Assembly: GCA_020216805.1 (NCBI GenBank)
Contig: JAIWNN010000089.1
Location: 1 to 10,000 of the forward strand
Origin: Desulfarculus sp.
GTDB lineage: Bacteria; Desulfobacterota; Desulfarculia; Desulfarculales; Desulfarculaceae
Length of the DNA: 10,000 bases
Direction: 5' to 3'
In this document: in pieces, positions 2,366-10,000 of the stretch
Layout: each line of letters starts with the position of its first letter
How positions within the stretch are numbered: position 1 is the first letter of the stretch
Made by a program: the position numbers and the translations under genes
Notes under the pieces: model-generated
Databases searched by the model: none
Seen by the model: the letters and a program-made list of their open reading frames with translations, nothing else
What the model was told of the DNA's origin: nothing

Positions 2366-5300
2366 ATGCAAGGCGCCAGGACAGGTCTGCCCCCCGAGGT
2401 GCGGCGTTTCTCGGGGTTGTACCGCTTCATCGCCCCGGAGCGCTTTCCCGAGCTGGGAATCGATCCCGAGGATGTCCCCCTGGGAACCTTCCCGGCCGAG
2501 GACCACCCCCCTTTTTTGCCCGACCGCTTCGGGGGCAACGCCTACGGTCTGGGGTTGTTTGAGCAGACCATCCTGCCCGACGATGAATCGCGTCTGCTGG
2601 ACCGCCTGGATTTCACCGAGCCGGCCCAGGTGGCCGCCCACCATCGCCAGCTCAACGACATCTTCAAGCGCCTGGGGCTTCTTATTCGCTTCACCAGCCT
2701 GGGTCGCCCCTTCTACCTGATCCCCCGACAGTTCGTGGCCCACTTCCTGGTGGAGGTGCGCTCCAAGGCTGACCTGATCGCCGATTTCCTGGCCGAGCTC
2801 ATGGCCCGCAAGCTGCGCGAGACCCTGCGCGTGGCTCTGGTCTGCGCCGACAGCGAGCTGTTATTGCCCGAGATCCAAGGCCGGATGCCCTACCTGGAGT
2901 TTGTGGTCCTGGACAGCCTGCCGGCCTTGACCGCCAGCCGTCGCTCCCCCTTCGCGGCGGTGGTGATGGTGGGCGATCCCCGCAACTTCGCCCTGCGCCA
3001 GTTACGGCGCGAGGGTCTGGAGCCGCCCCGGGACCGCGAGCGGCGTGAGGCCTACGGCTACTTTATGGCCAGCCGGTTCTACGACCTGCTGGAGGAGGAC
3101 GGCGAGCTTTTGGCCCTGGCCGACCGCCCCCTGGGCTCCAGCCGCGAGACCCTCTCGGTAAGCTTCCGGGGTCAGGACGAGTTCAAGCGCTTCCTGCTCT
3201 TCAGCCACGTCTACCGCACCCGGCGGCGCTACAAGAGCGGCGAGGGCCTGACCATGCAGGTCAACCGCTTCGACTTCAACGCCTTTCTCTCCGGGTTGGG
3301 GGTCTATCACGAGACGGTGGAGGGCTTGTTGGGCGGACGCAGCCTGCCCCGGGTGGACCCGCGGGAGATCGACGCGCTGGACTATCAGGACCTGCCCCTG
3401 CCTCGAGGTTCGGCCCCCCGCCTGCTGGCGGCCTGGAAGCGCTGGTTCGGCCCCTTTTTCCATGAGCAGAGGCTGACCACGGTCCTGCCCGAGGTCCAGC
3501 GCCGGGAGTGGCAGGAACGCTACCTCATCGACGGCGAGTTCCCGCCCACCCAGGTGGTGCTCCACGGTCGCCGCCGTCGGCCGCCCCTGACCCTGACCCG
3601 GCTGGAATCCCAGGCCGGGCGCCGCCACCTGGTGGGGTGCGAGCGACTCTTGCTGGCCGACTACAAGGACTCCCTGGACTACGTGCTCAAGGTGCTGGGA
3701 GTTCTGGACCAGGTGCGCCAGGGCAGTTTCGAGCAGGTGCCGGGGCTGGAGCTGAGCCGTCTGCGCAAGCCCTTCGAGAGCTCCCACCGCCATCCCCAGA
3801 CCCAGGACGTGCTGGCGCTGTTGGAGTTGGCTCCCCGGCTCAAGCGCCTGGGCGAGCGCCTCAACCCAGGCGGGCTGATGGGACCTCGCACCCCGGTGCT
3901 GGACAACCTGGAGAAGCTATCGCTGCTGGGGCTGGAGGAGGGCCCTTTAAGCCAGATCTATCTGATCGTCCTGGGGCATTCCACCATGACCCGGGTCACC
4001 TTCGGCAAGCTGCCCGAGACCACCCTGCGCCCGCTGACCGACATCAGCCGCTACCAGAGCCTGGAGGAGGCGGTGGCCGTCATCCGCCTCTACCGACTGC
4101 TCTCGGTGGCCGAGGCCGCCGCCGCCAGCGAGACCGGCCTGAGCCCGGAGCAGGTGGAGGAGATGTTCAGTCTCTATGACAGCTCCATCCGGGTGGTGAC
4201 CGACCAGGATCTGGACTGGAACGACATTCTGGACGATCAGATCAGCCGGCTGGGTGGGGTGCAGGCCATGGCCGCGCGCAAGATGCTCAAGCTTTTCGAC
4301 CTGTTCGAGTTCCTGGAGCGCTGGCGCAATCTGATGGGGGCCGGCCCCCGCACCAAGGAGGCCCTGGCCGACTACGACTCCCAGAAGCTGGCCCGCATCC
4401 AGATGGTCATCGAGTTGGTGCAGCAGGTCGGGCGTTTCGTGGGGCGTTTTTACGCCGGCGACTCCTCGGCCCGCCCTTATTTCTTCCGCGCCCTTTTGAA
4501 CAGCGAGTTGCACGGCACCGGGCGGCTGCTGCATCACCTGGGCACCGCCGCCGGCTTCACCCTGCTCTGGATCTGCGTCCACACCAGCGAACGGCGGCTG
4601 ATCAACATGAACCGACTACAGGAGGTCCCGCCCCGACTCCTGGAAGAGCGCCTGGGCAAGCTGCGCAAGGCGCTGACCGACCTGGCCCCGGAGCTGCTGT
4701 CTCCGGAGTGGTTGGCCGGCCTGCGCGAGGAGATCTCTCGGCGGGGCGAAGCCTACGTGCGCGACTCGGGTCTCTACCTGACCCTGGACCAGGCCACCGG
4801 CGCCCTGACCCCGCGCTTCGTGGACGTGGCCCACGAGCTGGCCCAACTCAAGCGCGAGCTGACCCTGACCCTGGGCCAGCCCCTGGGCCAGGTGCCGGAG
4901 GGGCGTCTGGCGGCCATGGACCGTCGGGCCCACGAGGTGGGACGCTTCCTGCGCGCCCAGGCCAGTGAACGCCAGTCTTCGACTCCGGGAGTGGTCGGCC
5001 AGGCCTTGGACCAGGAGCACCGGGGCCTGACCCGCCAGTTGGAGCACTACCTGCTGGAGCAGCTTTTCCACCTGGGAGATTTCGCCGAGCACCTGCGCCG
5101 CCTGGTGGAGCATTGCCCCCACCTGATGGACCGGCTCTTGCCCCAGCCCACCAACCACCCCCAGACCGCCCGGCGTCTGGCCGCCGCCGCCAAGCTCACC
5201 GCCCTTTATAGCCGCCGCCTGGACCAGTTCCAGGACATGAAGCTCAGCCACGAGCAGGCGCGGGTGGAATTCGGCCAGGCCGCCACCGGCATTGTGGGGG

Positions 5301-7006
5301 TCTCGCCCCTGCAGTTCCAAAGCCTCACCGCCAGCCTCAGCCAACTGCTGGCCAGCCAGCCTCGCCTGGAGCTGCTTATGATGCTGGCGGTGTTGCTCTA
5401 CGACCCCAACCAGACCCGACCCCTGGGTCATCCCGATCTGGCCTCGCCGCTCATCCATCGGCTGGAGCTGACCCGCGCCCTGCACCAGGACCTGGATTTC
5501 CTTTTGCGCCACTACGACCGCCCGCGCCAGGCCATCATCGGCGAGGTGAGCCTGCTCTCCCTGGAGCCGCTGTTGAGCGTCCAGGACCCGCCCCTGGTGG
5601 AGGCCCTGTTCCTGCTCGCCGTCGTGGCTACCGCCGCCCGGGAGGAGGGCCTGCTCACCGAGGACTTCCTGGAGCGTCTGTTCGCGCTCCAGAACCAGTT
5701 GCGCAACCTGACCCGCGGTGGTCACAACGCCCGCTGGGCCCAGGAGCGCCTGGTGGAGGACAACGCCCGGCGCCATTTGGCCTGCGAGCACTATCTGGAG
5801 ATCCAGCGCGGCGAGGCCCCCACCGCCAGCCTGCGCCAACTCCTGGAATCCACCCGCCTGCCCAGCGTGGAGCCCGAACGCGGCAACCTGCTGGAGCAGG
5901 GGCGGCTCGGCACCGGCCTGGACCGGCTGTTGCGCCTGCGGGGCCTGACCCACGTCAGCGCCCTGGACCTGACCCTGTTGCGGGCCGACGTGCCGGTGCC
6001 CTTCATCTACCGTCTCAAGGGCCTGCGTTCCATGGGCATCACCCATTTCGAGCGCGATCTCTACGAGGGGCTGCGCCTCTACCGCGGCCTGCTCTCCCTG
6101 CCCAACCAATACCAGGGGTTTCTCCTGCGCTCCCTGGCCGACACCCGCCGCGAGGTGCGTCTGGCCAGCTTCGCCCAGGCCGCCGAGCGTCTGAACAACA
6201 ACAACCAGGTCCGCCTGCTGCTGCTGGGCCTGGCCGCCGCCGCCAAGCTGGAGTTCGGGGCGGCCGGCAATGTCCTGACCGTGGACTTCCGCCCCCTGGC
6301 CCAGGTGATGGAGACCAAGTTCGAGCTGGTCAACGAGGCCCTGAGCCAGGTGGAGCCCTCGGCCCTGCTCAACAGCCCTCGGGGCCTGGCCCGACTGCTG
6401 GACAGCCGCCAGGGGTTGACCCTGCACCCTGACCCCCTGGCCAACAGCGTCAGCGTGGACATGGCCGACCTGGCCCGCATCGACCGCAAGATCGAGGCCG
6501 TACGCCGGGCCTCCACCCCGGCCAAGCTCAAGCGGATCTACCACCAGGAGCTCAAGCGCCTGAAGCTGACCACCTACAGCACCCTGGACTACCAGCGGCG
6601 GCTGGAGGCGGCTTTCAACGAGAACCTGAACCGCTTGGGCGAGAAAATGATGGAGGAGGTGCGCCAGGAACTGGCCCAGGAGGATCGCCTGGACCACCTG
6701 GAGGCCATCTTCCAGGCCGCATGGGAGGAGGGTTTGGAGCTGCCCCTGTCCCAGGACCGGCAGCAGAGTCTGCGCGACCTGTTCGAGATGAACCTGGAGC
6801 GGCTGCGCACCCAGTTCCTGACCCAGGTGGCCGGGCGCCTGGCCCAGGTGGAGGACTTCGCCGCCCTGGACCGCCTTTGGTCCGAGGTGCGGCCCGCCCT
6901 GGCCGCCCAGCGCCGCTGGCTGGGCAAGGACTTCGACCTGCAACTGGCGGCCCGCTTCGACCAGCGGGCCCAGGAGCTGCGCTCCCAGGCCCGCCCCGCG
7001 GTCTGA
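2366..7006 (+). CDS. Giant unassigned protein, 1546 residues, predicted cytoplasmic and mostly helical
   Basis: I do not recognise this protein. The ATG at 2366 is the first possible start after an in-frame stop at 2300-2302; only a loose G-rich stretch precedes it. No signal peptide or convincing membrane span is visible, and only five cysteines occur (160, 425, 737, 917, 1140). Residues 1-150 are mixed and hydrophobic. About 152-290 reads like a worn methyltransferase Rossmann fold: strands at 155-160, 178-183, 197-202 and 246-251, a helix before the last strand, but no glycine-rich SAM loop. Residues 350-950 are mainly amphipathic helices rich in Leu, Arg and Glu. About 998-1115 resembles the HD region of GlnD-like proteins in helix pattern, but the HD pair is replaced by Y1012-D1013. 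The C-terminus (1411-1546) carries roughly 57-residue repeats. The gene has no operon partner. Uniform GC-rich coding over 4.6 kb with no stop argues for a functional gene; scaffold, regulatory or degenerate-enzyme roles are all possible. Confidence 0.88.
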   Translation: MQGARTGLPPEVRRFSGLYRFIAPERFPELGIDPEDVPLGTFPAEDHPPFLPDRFGGNAYGLGLFEQTILPDDESRLLDRLDFTEPAQVAAHHRQLNDIFKRLGLLIRFTSLGRPFYLIPRQFVAHFLVEVRSKADLIADFLAELMARKLRETLRVALVCADSELLLPEIQGRMPYLEFVVLDSLPALTASRRSPFAAVVMVGDPRNFALRQLRREGLEPPRDRERREAYGYFMASRFYDLLEEDGELLALADRPLGSSRETLSVSFRGQDEFKRFLLFSHVYRTRRRYKSGEGLTMQVNRFDFNAFLSGLGVYHETVEGLLGGRSLPRVDPREIDALDYQDLPLPRGSAPRLLAAWKRWFGPFFHEQRLTTVLPEVQRREWQERYLIDGEFPPTQVVLHGRRRRPPLTLTRLESQAGRRHLVGCERLLLADYKDSLDYVLKVLGVLDQVRQGSFEQVPGLELSRLRKPFESSHRHPQTQDVLALLELAPRLKRLGERLNPGGLMGPRTPVLDNLEKLSLLGLEEGPLSQIYLIVLGHSTMTRVTFGKLPETTLRPLTDISRYQSLEEAVAVIRLYRLLSVAEAAAASETGLSPEQVEEMFSLYDSSIRVVTDQDLDWNDILDDQISRLGGVQAMAARKMLKLFDLFEFLERWRNLMGAGPRTKEALADYDSQKLARIQMVIELVQQVGRFVGRFYAGDSSARPYFFRALLNSELHGTGRLLHHLGTAAGFTLLWICVHTSERRLINMNRLQEVPPRLLEERLGKLRKALTDLAPELLSPEWLAGLREEISRRGEAYVRDSGLYLTLDQATGALTPRFVDVAHELAQLKRELTLTLGQPLGQVPEGRLAAMDRRAHEVGRFLRAQASERQSSTPGVVGQALDQEHRGLTRQLEHYLLEQLFHLGDFAEHLRRLVEHCPHLMDRLLPQPTNHPQTARRLAAAAKLTALYSRRLDQFQDMKLSHEQARVEFGQAATGIVGVSPLQFQSLTASLSQLLASQPRLELLMMLAVLLYDPNQTRPLGHPDLASPLIHRLELTRALHQDLDFLLRHYDRPRQAIIGEVSLLSLEPLLSVQDPPLVEALFLLAVVATAAREEGLLTEDFLERLFALQNQLRNLTRGGHNARWAQERLVEDNARRHLACEHYLEIQRGEAPTASLRQLLESTRLPSVEPERGNLLEQGRLGTGLDRLLRLRGLTHVSALDLTLLRADVPVPFIYRLKGLRSMGITHFERDLYEGLRLYRGLLSLPNQYQGFLLRSLADTRREVRLASFAQAAERLNNNNQVRLLLLGLAAAAKLEFGAAGNVLTVDFRPLAQVMETKFELVNEALSQVEPSALLNSPRGLARLLDSRQGLTLHPDPLANSVSVDMADLARIDRKIEAVRRASTPAKLKRIYHQELKRLKLTTYSTLDYQRRLEAAFNENLNRLGEKMMEEVRQELAQEDRLDHLEAIFQAAWEEGLELPLSQDRQQSLRDLFEMNLERLRTQFLTQVAGRLAQVEDFAALDRLWSEVRPALAAQRRWLGKDFDLQLAARFDQRAQELRSQARPAV
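6596..7003 (+). repeat. About 57-residue protein repeats at the C-terminus of the giant protein
   Basis: Residues 1411-1454 and 1467-1510 align at an offset of about 56: LEAAFNENLNRL matches LRDLFEMNLERL, and RQELAQEDRLDHLEAIF matches AGRLAQVEDFAALDRLW. A third, truncated copy begins with LAARFDQRAQEL about 58 residues later and runs to the C-terminus. The equivalent phenylalanines are F1417, F1473 and F1531. The pattern suggests helical-hairpin units. DNA identity between the copies is not obvious, so the duplication is old. Confidence 0.5.
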
Positions 7007-7050
7007 CCTCCGCCCCGACCGGGACGACGCCGGACCGGCCGAGCCGATGG

Positions 7051-7656
7051 CTATTTCTCCGCGTAAACCTCCCAGTGCAGCAGGTCGGCCAAGGCCCGCT
7101 TGGGCACCCGCTGGCGGCCGTCCTGGTCGCGCCAATAGCGAATGGCCTCCCGGCCGGCCTGGCCGGGTTCCAGATCCACCACCGCCGGATCCTCGGCCGC
7201 CGCTCCCAGGGCCAGCACCGAGTCGATCTCCAGACCCTCGGGCAGGTCGATGATCTTGGCCAGGCGGGGCAGGTTGATGGACTTGAGCCAGCAGGAGGCC
7301 AGGCCCTTTTCCACCGCCAGCAGCATGGCCGCCATCAGGGCCGCGCCCACGTCGTAGGCCCAGCCCACCGGGGCCTTGTATTCGGGTCGGGCCAGGACGA
7401 TCAGGTAGGCGGTGGGGCGCTGGCCCGGGCCGGGGGTGCCCACCGGATGGGTGTAGGCCGCCCATTTCAGGCAGTCGAAAACCTGCTGACAGCGCTCCGG
7501 CTGGCTCACCACCACGTATTCCAGGGGTTGCAGGTTGGCGGCCGAGGGGGCCAGACGCGCCGCCGCCACCAGCTCGGTCAGGGTCTGGCGGGAAATGGGT
7601 TCTTGCCCGAATGCCCGCACCGAACGTCGCTTGCCGATCGCCTCGTTCACATGCAC
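7051..7656 (-). CDS. Nitroreductase-family FMN oxidoreductase
   Basis: This is a 201-residue soluble flavoprotein of the nitroreductase fold, normally a homodimer using FMN and NAD(P)H to reduce nitro compounds, quinones or similar acceptors. The N-terminal KRRSVR (9-14) is the FMN-phosphate motif. APSAANLQP (36-44) is the second FMN contact. The helix at 101-118 (YDVGAALMAAMLLAVEKG) followed by LASCWL and a later LALGAAAED (148-156) is the classic C-terminal half. The start is GTG at 7656, supported by AAGGGAG 6 bases upstream. That site lies in the 16-base gap after the fusion gene's stop, so the two are almost certainly co-transcribed, with this gene last. It is convergent with the giant ORF, 44 bases away. 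The physiological substrate is unknown. Its neighbours (isoprenoid and prenyl transfer) make a quinone-type acceptor conceivable, but this is only inference. Confidence 0.9.
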   Translation of the reverse strand: MHVNEAIGKRRSVRAFGQEPISRQTLTELVAAARLAPSAANLQPLEYVVVSQPERCQQVFDCLKWAAYTHPVGTPGPGQRPTAYLIVLARPEYKAPVGWAYDVGAALMAAMLLAVEKGLASCWLKSINLPRLAKIIDLPEGLEIDSVLALGAAAEDPAVVDLEPGQAGREAIRYWRDQDGRQRVPKRALADLLHWEVYAEK

Positions 7657-7672: not shown

Positions 7673-9421
7673 TTAGAAAAAGTGCGACCAGGCCAGGGCC
7701 GTCAGCCCGGCCAGCCAGAAATTCAGATCCACCAGACCCTCGGAGATGGCCCCAGGCATCAGCCAAGGCCGGGTCAGGAGCACCTGCATCGCCTCCAGGC
7801 CGGCCACCGGCGCCAAGAGCGCCCAAGCCAGGCTGGAGATCGGGGTCAGCAGCGGGGCCAGGATCAGGATCGCGGCCAGGCCCAGGGTCAGATTCAGCAA
7901 CAACCGCCGGGTCTTGGTCTCGCCCAGGAAGAGCGGGATGGTCTCCTTGCCCACGATCAGGTCGCCCTGCACGTCCAGGATGTCGAACAGGGCGCAGCGG
8001 ACGAAGAGCAGCACCAGGGTGAAGGCGAAGGCCAGGGGCGTGGCCCAGGGGTCGAACCGCCCCTCGGCCAGGGCCGGCAACAGGGCCACCATGAAGGCCC
8101 AGGCCAGGGCGGCGGAGAGGGTCTTGGAGCCGGGGATGTCCTTCAGGCGCTCGAAGCCGATGCGCCGCTCCAGGCGGGCCGGGATCACCGGCACCGAATA
8201 GAGCAGGCCCAGCACGCTCATCACCAACACCAGGCCAAAGGGCCAGGGCCCCAGGCGGGCGCAGAGCAACAGCGCGGCCAGGGCCGCGAGCACCCCGGAT
8301 CCGATCAGGAAGAACCGGTGCTTGGCCAGGAACTGGGCCCGGTCGGGCTCGTTGTACTGACCGGCCTCCTTGTCCAGGAAATGATTGAGGATGTGCATGG
8401 CGAAGATGTAGAGGGAGGCCACCCCCAGCAAATCGAACCGGGGTTCCAGGCCCTGGAGCAGGCAGGAGGCCAGGGTCATCCCGGCCGCGCCCAGGCCCAC
8501 CAGGATCTGGCTGCGCACCAGGAAGCGAAAGACCCGGCGCAGCCAGAAGTTCAGCCCTCCCTCGCCCTGGCCGCGGATGGTGTCGATCTCCCGCACCACC
8601 TTTTTGATCATCCAGTTGGGGGTGCTGGCCCCGGCGGTGACCGCCACCGCGCCCAGCCGGGCCAGGGCGGCCCGGTCCAGGTCGGCCTCGCTTTCCACCA
8701 GGAAGGCCGGCTTGCCGCCCTGGGCGGCCAGTTGGGCCAGGCGCTTGGTGTTGCCGCTCTCCAGGCCGCCCACCACCACCACCCCGTCCACTTCCTCCGC
8801 CAGGCGCAGCACCTCGTCCTGGCGGCTGTGGGTGGCCTCGCAGATGGTGTCGTGCACGTCCACCAGGGCGTAGCGGGCCTGCAAGGCGGCCACCACCCGG
8901 GCGAAGAGGTCCTGGCTCTGGGTGGTCTGGGCCACCACCACCACCTGACCCGCCTGCTCCGGCAAATCGGCCACCTCTTCCGGTCGGCTGACCACCACCC
9001 CCTGGCCGGCGGCGTGGCCCATCAGCCCCACCACCTCCGGGTGGTCGGCGTCGCCCACGATGACCACCATCGCTCCCCGCCGGGCGGCCTTGCCGATGAT
9101 GGCCTGCACCTTCACCACCCGGGGGCAGGTGCCGTCCACCACCTTGGCGAAGCCGGCGGCCTCGAGACGGGCCTTGGCCTGGGGCGGCACCCCGTGGGCG
9201 CGGATGATCACCGTGCCGCCGGTCCGCGAACCGGCGGGCGGAATCTCGCGCAGCACCTCGACCCCCTTGGTGCGCAGCAGCTCCAGGACCTGGGGGTTGT
9301 GGATCAGGGGGCCGTAGGTGCACAGCTCGGCCGGGTGCTCATGGGCCTCGGCCAAAGCCAGCTCCATGGCCCGGCGCACCCCCATGCAGAATCCCGCGGT
9401 GCGGGCCAGACGCACCCTCAT
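7673..9421 (-). CDS. ispH: IspH-UbiA fusion: HMBPP reductase joined to a membrane prenyltransferase
   Basis: A single 582-residue chain carries two complete domains. Residues 1-284 are IspH, the [4Fe-4S] enzyme that reduces HMBPP to IPP and DMAPP in the last MEP-pathway step. The cluster cysteines C12 (GFCMGV), C99 (DGTCP) and C194 (DTICEATHSRQ) are present. So are substrate residues H41, H76, H127, E129, T166/T167, S222 and N224 (ESGN) and S266 (TAGASTP). Residues 296-582 are a UbiA-superfamily prenyltransferase with about eight or nine membrane helices. The first Mg-diphosphate motif is N346-HFL-D350 with YNEPDR at 356-361, and the second is D480, D483 and D487 (FDILDVQGD), followed by GKETIPLFLG. 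The linker is only about a dozen residues. ATG at 9421 has GGAGG 4 bases upstream and overlaps the preceding dus stop (ATGA), which suggests translational coupling. The prenyl acceptor is unknown: the usual RPxPSG after motif 1 is absent, so UbiA, MenA or heme O synthase labels are not justified. Confidence 0.93.
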   Translation of the reverse strand: MRVRLARTAGFCMGVRRAMELALAEAHEHPAELCTYGPLIHNPQVLELLRTKGVEVLREIPPAGSRTGGTVIIRAHGVPPQAKARLEAAGFAKVVDGTCPRVVKVQAIIGKAARRGAMVVIVGDADHPEVVGLMGHAAGQGVVVSRPEEVADLPEQAGQVVVVAQTTQSQDLFARVVAALQARYALVDVHDTICEATHSRQDEVLRLAEEVDGVVVVGGLESGNTKRLAQLAAQGGKPAFLVESEADLDRAALARLGAVAVTAGASTPNWMIKKVVREIDTIRGQGEGGLNFWLRRVFRFLVRSQILVGLGAAGMTLASCLLQGLEPRFDLLGVASLYIFAMHILNHFLDKEAGQYNEPDRAQFLAKHRFFLIGSGVLAALAALLLCARLGPWPFGLVLVMSVLGLLYSVPVIPARLERRIGFERLKDIPGSKTLSAALAWAFMVALLPALAEGRFDPWATPLAFAFTLVLLFVRCALFDILDVQGDLIVGKETIPLFLGETKTRRLLLNLTLGLAAILILAPLLTPISSLAWALLAPVAGLEAMQVLLTRPWLMPGAISEGLVDLNFWLAGLTALAWSHFF

Positions 9422-9430
9422 GCCGCCTCC
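9418..9430 (-). promoter_or_regulatory. ATGA stop-start overlap with an internal ribosome binding site
   Basis: The end of dus contains GGAGG (9430-9426), then CGGC, then ATGA. The ATG (9421-9419) starts the fusion and the overlapping TGA (9420-9418) ends dus. This layout marks an operon with likely coupled translation and confirms the fusion's start. Confidence 0.8.
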
Positions 9431-10000
9431 CGCTCCAGACGCTCGAAAAGCTCGTCGGCCAGGGCCATCAGCCGCTCCAGATCGGCGGCCATGCCCACCG
9501 CCCGGCGTAAGGAGGGCGCGCCGACTCGACCCTTGGCGTGGTTCATCAGGCATTGGCGGAAGAAATGCACCGCGTGGCGCGGCCCGCCCAGTTCCAGGGC
9601 GATCATGGCGTGCTGCTTGTAGGCTGCCAGGCGCTCGCCGGCCGGGGGCCCGCCCGGCTCCCGTCCGGCCCAGAGGTCGGCCGCCCGGCCAAAGACCCAG
9701 GGGTCGGCCAGGGCCCCGCGGCCGATCATCACCGCGTCGCAGCCGGTGGCCGCCAGCATGGCGTTGGCGCTTTCGGCGTCCTTGGCGTCGCCGTTGCCGA
9801 TCACCGGCAGCGGGCACCAGGACTTCAGCCGGGCGATGGCCCCCCAGTCGGCCCGGCCGGAATAGCCTTGGCGCACGGTGCGGGCGTGCAGGCAGATCGC
9901 CGCCGCCCCGGCCCCGACCAAGCCAGGCACCACCTCCTCGGTGGTGTCGGAGTCGTAGCCCAGGCGCAGCTTGACCGTCACCGGCCGGCCGGCGTTGGCC
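9418..10000 (-). CDS. tRNA-dihydrouridine synthase, DusB-like (partial, N-terminus outside window)
   Basis: This is the C-terminal 193 residues of an FMN-dependent tRNA-dihydrouridine synthase, which reduces uridines in the tRNA D-loop. The frame is open to the window edge, and the residues just before the GTG at 9981 (ANAGRP) continue the family pattern PVTVKLRLG, so that GTG is internal. Visible motifs are VTVKLRLGYD, with the conserved substrate/flavin-contacting lysine, LHARTVRQGYSG (the family HgRT...ysG segment), PVIGNGD and MIGRGALADPW, which form the FMN-phosphate end of the TIM barrel. The remainder is the helical tRNA-binding domain. The catalytic cysteine lies beyond the window. 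The gene heads the visible part of a leftward operon. The wording of the motifs favours DusB over DusA or DusC, but the subfamily cannot be confirmed from this half. Confidence 0.93.
   Translation of the reverse strand, partial: ANAGRPVTVKLRLGYDSDTTEEVVPGLVGAGAAAICLHARTVRQGYSGRADWGAIARLKSWCPLPVIGNGDAKDAESANAMLAATGCDAVMIGRGALADPWVFGRAADLWAGREPGGPPAGERLAAYKQHAMIALELGGPRHAVHFFRQCLMNHAKGRVGAPSLRRAVGMAADLERLMALADELFERLEREAA

What the first reader, a model, noticed from the sequence alone, without database searches (positions are those of the whole stretch)
7673..9421. Single-chain fusion of IspH (last MEP enzyme) with a UbiA-type membrane prenyltransferase
Seen: one uninterrupted 582-codon frame with every IspH cluster and substrate residue, followed after about a dozen residues by a UbiA domain with both aspartate motifs. 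Known: IspH is normally a soluble stand-alone enzyme, and UbiA enzymes use longer polyprenyl diphosphates made by separate synthases. Inference: the fusion tethers IspH to the membrane and may couple precursor supply to a specific prenylation, or may use DMAPP/IPP directly as donor, skipping a long-chain synthase. I cannot tell how widespread the architecture is.
Basis: partly seen in the sequence, partly recalled or inferred. Interest (0 to 1): 0.72.

Follow-up and report, generated by a model that had tools for sequence, protein, structure and literature searches.

The report
IspH fused to UbiA-derived membrane domain
A key enzyme of isoprenoid synthesis is fused to a membrane prenyltransferase-like domain, an architecture already published, but in several related lineages that membrane part has lost its catalytic residues and still stays attached, which suggests that holding the enzyme at the membrane matters more than the transferase reaction.

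Summary
The fusion is real. It lies on the minus strand, 9421..7673 (582 aa): a complete IspH (residues 1-283) joined to a UbiA-type membrane domain. It is no artefact: 103 of 104 homologues carry both domains. The architecture is not new: Rao et al. 2015 (PMC4746011) described 47 such hybrids in sulfate reducers, function unknown. A separate MqnP-like UbiA makes a quinone role unlikely. What I add, not found in the papers searched: in f32 (Thermodesulfobacterium; 11 of 11 genomes), f36 (Desulfomonilia-like; 7 of 7 tested), f41 (2 of 2 fused) and 4 of 14 f4 genomes, IspH keeps a 261-320 aa domain descended from UbiA without motif 1 acids, often with motif 2 damaged too, while checked IspH residues show no substitution. 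On the IspH tree this needs 8 changes, and the eroded domains still show purifying selection. Membrane tethering of IspH is thus the likely common denominator. Catalysis by the window's own copy stays open.

The parts
7673..9421 (-). IspH-UbiA fusion gene, ATG 9421, TAA 7675-7673, 582 aa
8573..9421 (-). IspH (LytB) domain, residues 1-283; cluster cysteines and checked substrate residues present
8558..8581 (-). short linker, residues 281-288
   Evidence: helix H269-280 ends, H289-303 begins in the AlphaFold2 model, pLDDT about 88-91 there
7676..8557 (-). UbiA-type membrane domain, residues 289-582
8339..8386 (-). degenerate first Asp motif NHFLDKEAGQYNEPDR (residues 346-361)
7961..7984 (-). intact second Asp motif DILDVQGD (residues 480-487)
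9418..10000 (-). dusB-like tRNA dihydrouridine synthase (start beyond the window); its TGA overlaps the fusion's ATG as ATGA, so the two are probably translationally coupled
7051..7656 (-). nitroreductase-family gene starting 16 bases after the fusion's stop, likely the same transcript (inference)

Best explanation
The gene encodes the cell's IspH, which reduces HMBPP to IPP and DMAPP (established for the family), permanently anchored on the inner face of the membrane by a C-terminal domain derived from a UbiA prenyltransferase. Shown: the fusion, its wide conservation, the intact IspH residues, the half-eroded first UbiA motif here, and its complete loss in other lineages that keep the membrane domain. 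Inferred: the selected function shared by the whole family is membrane docking, probably handing C5 diphosphates to membrane-associated prenyl-chain synthesis or keeping IspH near a membrane-linked electron donor. In this copy a diphosphate/Mg site may survive (N346, D350, K433, D483, D487), so transferase activity is possible but would be a second function, not the reason for the fusion.
For: UbiA-derived domains stay fused to IspH when motif 1 is lost: 29 of 120 fused domains (a set chosen partly for divergence) have no acid at 350 or 354, and 18 of these also lack one acid of DxxxD at 483/487. Homology of the eroded domains to the UbiA domain: hhalign probability 100 (f4), 99.5 (f41), 99.5 (L086/L119 of f32), 96.1 with E 3.6e-9 (f36); the other nine of f32 give 62.9 directly and 97.4 to L086/L119; five reversed-sequence controls against the UbiA profile give 0.2-8.3. 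The 11 IspH positions show no substitution in 120 fused and 45 standalone proteins, gaps aside. Eroded domains look to be under purifying selection: dN/dS 0.09-0.23 in 8 of the 9 eroded pairs where it could be computed (11 tested), against 0.10-0.44 in 5 comparison pairs. 101 of 107 f36 relatives and 15 of 15 f32 relatives carry LYTB but no UbiA in the precomputed Pfam; in f36 30% of C-terminal columns are at least 95% conserved. Erosion needs 8 changes on the IspH tree (6 forced by starred branches), and one eroded clade is rejected, p-AU 4e-59. In two f36 genomes the gene follows an isoprenoid gene row with FPP synthase; dxs and tlyA were confirmed by profile in one of them, L180. 20 of 20 fused genomes tested have at least one further UbiA-family gene.
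Against: Most fused domains keep part of the site: 86 of 120 have at least one motif 1 acid plus both motif 2 acids. S432 and K433 are invariant in 105 of 105, which looks like a working active site in the main lineages. The eroded domains keep specific polar residues (f36 GLKxxERDxIxG; f32 QTDGFLP), so they may have a new binding function rather than being plain anchors. In f36 the motif 1 stretch does not align at all (gaps, counted as no acid), and f36 and f32 domains show no direct similarity to each other (probability 0.2). The domain was lost outright in at least three places on the tree (G007; two f41 genomes; f81), and in G060 the UbiA part holds two stops, so it is dispensable there. 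dS exceeds 1 in 8 of the 9 computed eroded pairs, so dN/dS is rough. Nothing here shows membrane location or activity directly.
Confidence: 0.5

Rival explanations
1. True bifunctional enzyme: the UbiA domain transfers a prenyl chain to an unknown acceptor, and the fusion couples C5 supply to that step (the reading of Rao et al. 2015 and of the first reader).
For: Motif 2 intact in the window and in most relatives (D483 in 103 and D487 in 105 of 105). N346 and D350 kept; E. coli MenA, an annotated prenyltransferase, reads N-D-Y-G-D-A-V-K-G in motif 1, so Gly at the third place is tolerated there. Invariant S432-K433 and H343. Rao et al. (passages read) favour it.
Against: Motif 1 is absent in several lineages that keep the fusion, and the two remaining positions swap (D350/G354 in Desulfarculales, often G350/D354 in Desulfobacterales). 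No conserved acceptor-pathway neighbour among the 30 most frequent neighbour clusters of 80 named loci.
Confidence: 0.33
2. The UbiA domain uses DMAPP (or IPP) made by its own IspH directly as prenyl donor.
For: A UbiA homologue has been solved with DMAPP and Mg2+ (4tq4; title) and is among the fold matches.
Against: Only fold-level similarity (14% identity); the genome has two polyprenyl diphosphate synthase matches, so longer donors are probably available; no acceptor known.
Confidence: 0.08
3. The fused domain is the cell's quinone prenyltransferase.
For: UbiA family; sulfate reducers make menaquinone (Rao et al., passages read).
Against: A separate UbiA in the same genome is MqnP-like (TIGR01475 268.4 bits over a cut-off of 180.8; MqnP models hit below their cut-offs) beside a menaquinone decarboxylase, TIGR03701. 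G007, a 99% complete relative, has a standalone IspH and one UbiA only.
Confidence: 0.04
4. Sequencing or assembly artefact joining two genes.
For: The window comes from a 55% complete draft genome.
Against: The same fusion in 103 of 104 homologues, in 79 of 80 named loci, in the Desulfocarbo indianensis and Dethiosulfatarculus sandiegensis strain records and in single-contig genomes such as G014.
Confidence: 0.01

Closest known systems
IspH-UbiA hybrids of sulfate-reducing bacteria (Rao et al. 2015, Chem Sci, PMC4746011; abstract and passages read)
   Same: Identical architecture, IspH N-terminal and UbiA (PT_UbiA_5) C-terminal, same kind of bacteria, separate quinone UbiA/MenA in the genome; membrane location already proposed there.
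   Different: The paper reports two DXXXD repeats and infers transferase activity. Here motif 1 is DxxxG, and whole lineages with eroded UbiA domains are found, most of which Pfam does not call.
Standalone IspH (LytB), e.g. E. coli 3ke8, 3szu
   Different: E. coli IspH lacks the membrane domain.
UbiA superfamily: Aeropyrum pernix UbiA (4od4/4od5), Archaeoglobus UbiA (4tq3/4tq4)
   Different: 12-14% identity, first motif degenerate, fused to IspH.
MenA (E. coli)
   Same: Motif 1 with Gly in place of the third Asp.
   Different: MenA keeps the first Asp (N-D); the window has N-H.
IspH-ribosomal protein S1 fusions (NF000907; Rao et al.)
   Same: Another lineage-wide C-terminal fusion on IspH.
   Different: S1 repeats, not a membrane domain; the window scores 277.9 bits against a cut-off of 624, matching only the IspH part.

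Membership tests
IspH (LytB) | Curated profile above cut-off | tested here: met
   PF02401 291 bits (cut-off 24.5), TIGR00216 269.2 (cut-off 187.85)
IspH (LytB) | Three cluster cysteines and HMBPP-site residues | tested here: met
   C12, C99, C194, H41, H76, H127, E129, T167, S222, N224, S266 present; no substitution in 120 fused and 45 standalone proteins apart from gaps. Roles recalled; E126 and T167 of E. coli are named in PDB titles
IspH (LytB) | HMBPP reductase activity | not testable with these tools
   needs an assay
UbiA superfamily (by descent) | Profile and membrane helical fold | tested here: met
UbiA prenyltransferase (catalytic) | Second Asp motif DxxxD | tested here: met
   D483-V-Q-G-D487; Asp in 103 and 105 of 105
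UbiA prenyltransferase (catalytic) | First Asp motif NDxxDxxxD complete | tested here: not met
   NHFLDKEAG in the window; position 347 never Asp in 105. E. coli MenA itself deviates at the third Asp, so this alone does not prove inactivity
UbiA prenyltransferase (catalytic) | Prenyl transfer to an acceptor | not testable with these tools
   needs an assay; acceptor unknown
IspH-UbiA hybrid of Rao et al. 2015 | IspH N-terminal, UbiA C-terminal in one chain, sulfate-reducer lineage | tested here: met
   nearest relative L004 is titled Desulfarculus sp., 96% identical in the IspH part
IspH-UbiA hybrid of Rao et al. 2015 | Two DXXXD repeats (reported by the paper, not its definition) | tested here: not met
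   first repeat reads D350-K-E-A-G354
Futalosine-pathway quinone transferase MqnP | MqnP-type profile | tested here: not met
   No MqnP model among the 14 NCBIfam hits of the fusion; the separate UbiA of the genome hits three MqnP models below their cut-offs and TIGR01475 above it

The most novel reading that the evidence does not exclude
In a large part of Thermodesulfobacteriota IspH is an obligately membrane-anchored enzyme, and its anchor is a UbiA prenyltransferase that has been turned repeatedly and independently into a pseudo-transferase. The transferase site was dispensable; the membrane attachment, possibly with a retained diphosphate- or lipid-binding pocket, is what selection kept. 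This would make membrane docking of the last MEP step a real feature of isoprenoid metabolism in these anaerobes.
Probability: 0.45. Interest if true: 0.6.

Novelty: new member of a known kind. Interest (0 to 1): 0.45.

Why it matters
IspH is usually treated as a soluble enzyme. A lineage-wide membrane fusion, kept even after the transferase site decays, would mean that the last step of the MEP pathway works at the membrane in these anaerobes. It also tempers the simplest 'Rosetta stone' reading, that the two halves act in one pathway: domain catalogues do not call UbiA in most eroded members found (101 of 107 and 15 of 15), so the fusion has looked like a pair of active enzymes. The contrast between relatives gives a natural experiment: IspH with an active-looking, half-eroded, fully eroded or absent membrane partner.

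Tried and rejected
Artefact: rejected. Quinone transferase: made unlikely by the separate MqnP-like gene. Long-chain synthase missing: no, two polyprenyl synthase matches in each of 7 genomes. Functional hint from neighbours: in 80 named loci the recurring neighbours are dus (18 loci, 17 within 300 bases), ParA, ParB, DUF3842, M48 peptidase, PlsY, glycosyltransferase 2, YacP-NYN and Smr; nothing points to an acceptor. A TlyA-like gene is near in a few (4 loci, judged by sequence start only). My first idea that loss of D347 alone marks inactivity was dropped: the window genome's MqnP-like protein and A. pernix UbiA also lack an Asp there. My first motif score, which called the G350 forms 'eroded', was replaced by the count, because many of them carry Asp at 354. 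Long IspH frames are not by themselves fusions: G101 (614) and G007 (608) are standalone with a long upstream frame. Apparent standalone UbiA domains in the A2 search (G149, G307) sit at contig ends (G307 checked). The Zixiibacteriota and Scalindua copies were not followed into their phyla. The solved-structure search with the UbiA alignment found only 6m31, weakly (E 0.0011). 'Not in print' rests in an open-access library. Of Rao et al. I read the abstract and term passages, of PMC12605070 one passage, a reference; of the papers listed I otherwise saw only the listings.

Rows dropped before counts: the genome-contig scan kept the best 80 of 145 relatives. L048 (IspH cut by the contig) and L130 have no IspH row. 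The tree used 112 of 166 IspH sequences (165 loci plus the window): about every third named locus plus four chosen ones, rows under 250 residues and L099 left out. The genome listings show only the best rows (150 counted; one search is cut likewise).

Full report

Motif 2 (DILDVQGD) is intact. Motif 1 reads NHFLDKEAG instead of NDxxDxxxD. In 105 aligned proteins position 346 is Asn in 103, position 347 is His 58, Gln 28, Arg 14 and never Asp, position 350 is Asp in 98, position 354 is Gly in 87 and Asp in 7; position 483 is Asp in 103 and 487 in 105. In controls, E. coli UbiA reads NDYADRKFD, E. coli MenA NDYGDAVKG, the genome's own MqnP-like protein NRIADRRYD and A. pernix UbiA NNIADLDID. So the first Asp is not universal and a Gly at the third place is known, but the window has only one of three.

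Already published. Rao et al. 2015 (PMC4746011; abstract and passages) found 47 IspH-UbiA fusions in sulfate reducers, called the UbiA function unknown, noted two DXXXD repeats and a separate UbiA/MenA, and suggested membrane localisation with local IPP/DMAPP supply. They did not obtain full-length active fusion protein. The only other paper of the library that holds the term 'IspH-UbiA' has it in its reference list.

Spread. 104 homologues of the UbiA part were found; 103 carry both Pfam domains. In genome contigs 145 loci encode a relative, 80 were kept, and 79 of these carry IspH sequence in the same frame. They include Candidatus Scalindua (L067) and a Zixiibacteriota bin (L026). In 395 genomes of the phylum, 169 match the UbiA profile, 152 of them at E below 1e-15. 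Of the 150 of these whose rows are shown, 147 lie in open frames of 440 aa or more, two (G149, G307) are cut by contig ends and one (G060) holds two stops in the UbiA part. G336 and G406, not shown there, nine further f32 and seven f36 genomes were shown to be fused. That gives about 165 of 395; only up to six candidates per genome were scored, so some are missed. Reading the 152 against the IspH listing, 146 have exactly one IspH match, four have two (G170, G267, G300, G380) and two have none (G149, G307). The fusion is therefore usually the only IspH. In the own genome, 55% complete, it is the only one found.

Not the quinone enzyme. The genome's other UbiA lies beside a menaquinone decarboxylase and scores as MqnP/UbiA-like. 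20 of 20 fused genomes tested have at least one further UbiA gene. Relative G007 has a standalone IspH and one UbiA. Two polyprenyl synthase matches occur in each of the 7 genomes searched.

Eroded relatives. Following genomes with long IspH frames but weak UbiA scores, I found a C-terminal membrane domain of 261-275 aa in 11 of 11 f32 and 7 of 7 tested f36 genomes, 285 aa in 2 of 4 f41 genomes (the other two have standalone IspH), and 299-320 aa in 14 f4 genomes of the window's own class (a fifteenth f4 locus, L099, is cut by its contig). The f32 query protein is named Thermodesulfobacterium hydrogeniphilum; named f36 relatives include Desulfomonilia and Syntrophaceae bins. Profile comparison supports descent from the UbiA domain: f4 100, f41 99.5, f32 intermediates 99.5, f36 96.1, the other f32 62.9 directly and 97.4 through the intermediates; five reversed controls 0.2-8.3; f36 against f32 directly 0.2. 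Pfam calls no UbiA above cut-off in 8 of 8 tested. Among 120 fused domains, a set chosen partly for divergence and so not a frequency estimate, 29 have no acid at motif 1 positions 350/354 (f32 11 of 11, f36 7 of 7, f41 2 of 2, f4 4 of 14, named loci 5 of 79), and 18 of these also lack one of the two motif 2 acids; 86 keep at least one and both. In f36 the motif 1 stretch is a gap in the alignment and counts as no acid. The 11 IspH positions show no substitution in the 120 fused and 45 standalone proteins, gaps aside.

Still under selection. In 11 eroded pairs, dN/dS of the membrane domain could be computed in 9: eight lie at 0.09-0.23, one at 0.46 with dS 0.02. IspH halves of the eroded pairs, where defined, lie at 0.06-0.14. 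Five comparison pairs from less eroded members gave 0.10-0.44 for the membrane domain (dS above 1 in 8 of the 9, so rough). In 107 f36 homologues 30% of membrane-domain columns are at least 95% conserved, including a motif 2 remnant GLKxxERDxIxG; in 15 f32 homologues 10% at 93%, including QTDGFLP and RPLGQ. The domain is thus not mere junk and may bind something.

History. On an IspH tree of 112 rows, fused versus standalone needs 4 changes, and eroded versus other fused 8 (6 forced by starred branches). Holding all standalone proteins together is rejected (p-AU 6e-6), and holding all eroded together is rejected (p-AU 4e-59). The tree is a quick one and unrooted; the simplest reading, that the fusion is old, was lost at least three times (G007, f41, f81) and eroded several times, is inference. 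In two f36 genomes the gene follows an isoprenoid row: L180 has FPP synthase, dxs and tlyA by profile; in L179 FPP synthase by profile, the others by position and sequence start only.

Reading. The common denominator of the fused members examined is an intact IspH plus a membrane domain; an intact transferase site is not. I therefore prefer membrane docking of IspH as the selected function (0.5), with a true bifunctional transferase as the main rival for the intact lineages (0.33). The window's copy lies between the two: motif 2 whole, motif 1 half gone.

Noticed in passing
window 2366-7006 (+): A 1546-aa open frame without any Pfam or NCBIfam match. A relative (1539 aa in L013, also without a Pfam match) recurs in 8 of the 80 named loci, in 6 of them downstream of the fusion on the other strand, so it is probably a real, uncharacterised large protein.
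   Followed up: partly
window 4616-7465 (-): A 949-aa open frame antisense to the 1546-aa gene; looks like a high-GC shadow frame.
   Followed up: no
L004-L083; example L035 4395-4835: A DUF3842 gene lies upstream of the fusion in 21 loci; 12 members of the cluster lie within 300 bases. Function unknown.
   Followed up: partly
L175-L177 (f32): In three Thermodesulfobacterium-like genomes the eroded fusion follows a gene row that in L175 matches KDO-8-phosphate synthase, KdsC and RadC.
   Followed up: partly
G060:C37:3880-4731: The UbiA part of this fusion holds two stop codons while IspH lies in its own 341-aa frame: a domain being lost, or a draft error. Left as it is.
   Followed up: no
L037: The IspH part is split over two frames in this draft contig; left as it is, possibly an assembly error.
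   Followed up: no
P0120: A Thermodesulfobacterium-like eroded IspH fusion is labelled as from a Pacearchaeota archaeon; likely a mis-binned contig.
   Followed up: no
Desulfobacterales loci within L017-L083: The motif 1 aspartate changes place: D350/G354 in Desulfarculales (9 of 9), N-x-x-x-G-x-x-x-D in 25 of 35 Desulfobacterales rows (one of these with Ser instead of Gly). A possible site shift worth a structural look.
   Followed up: partly
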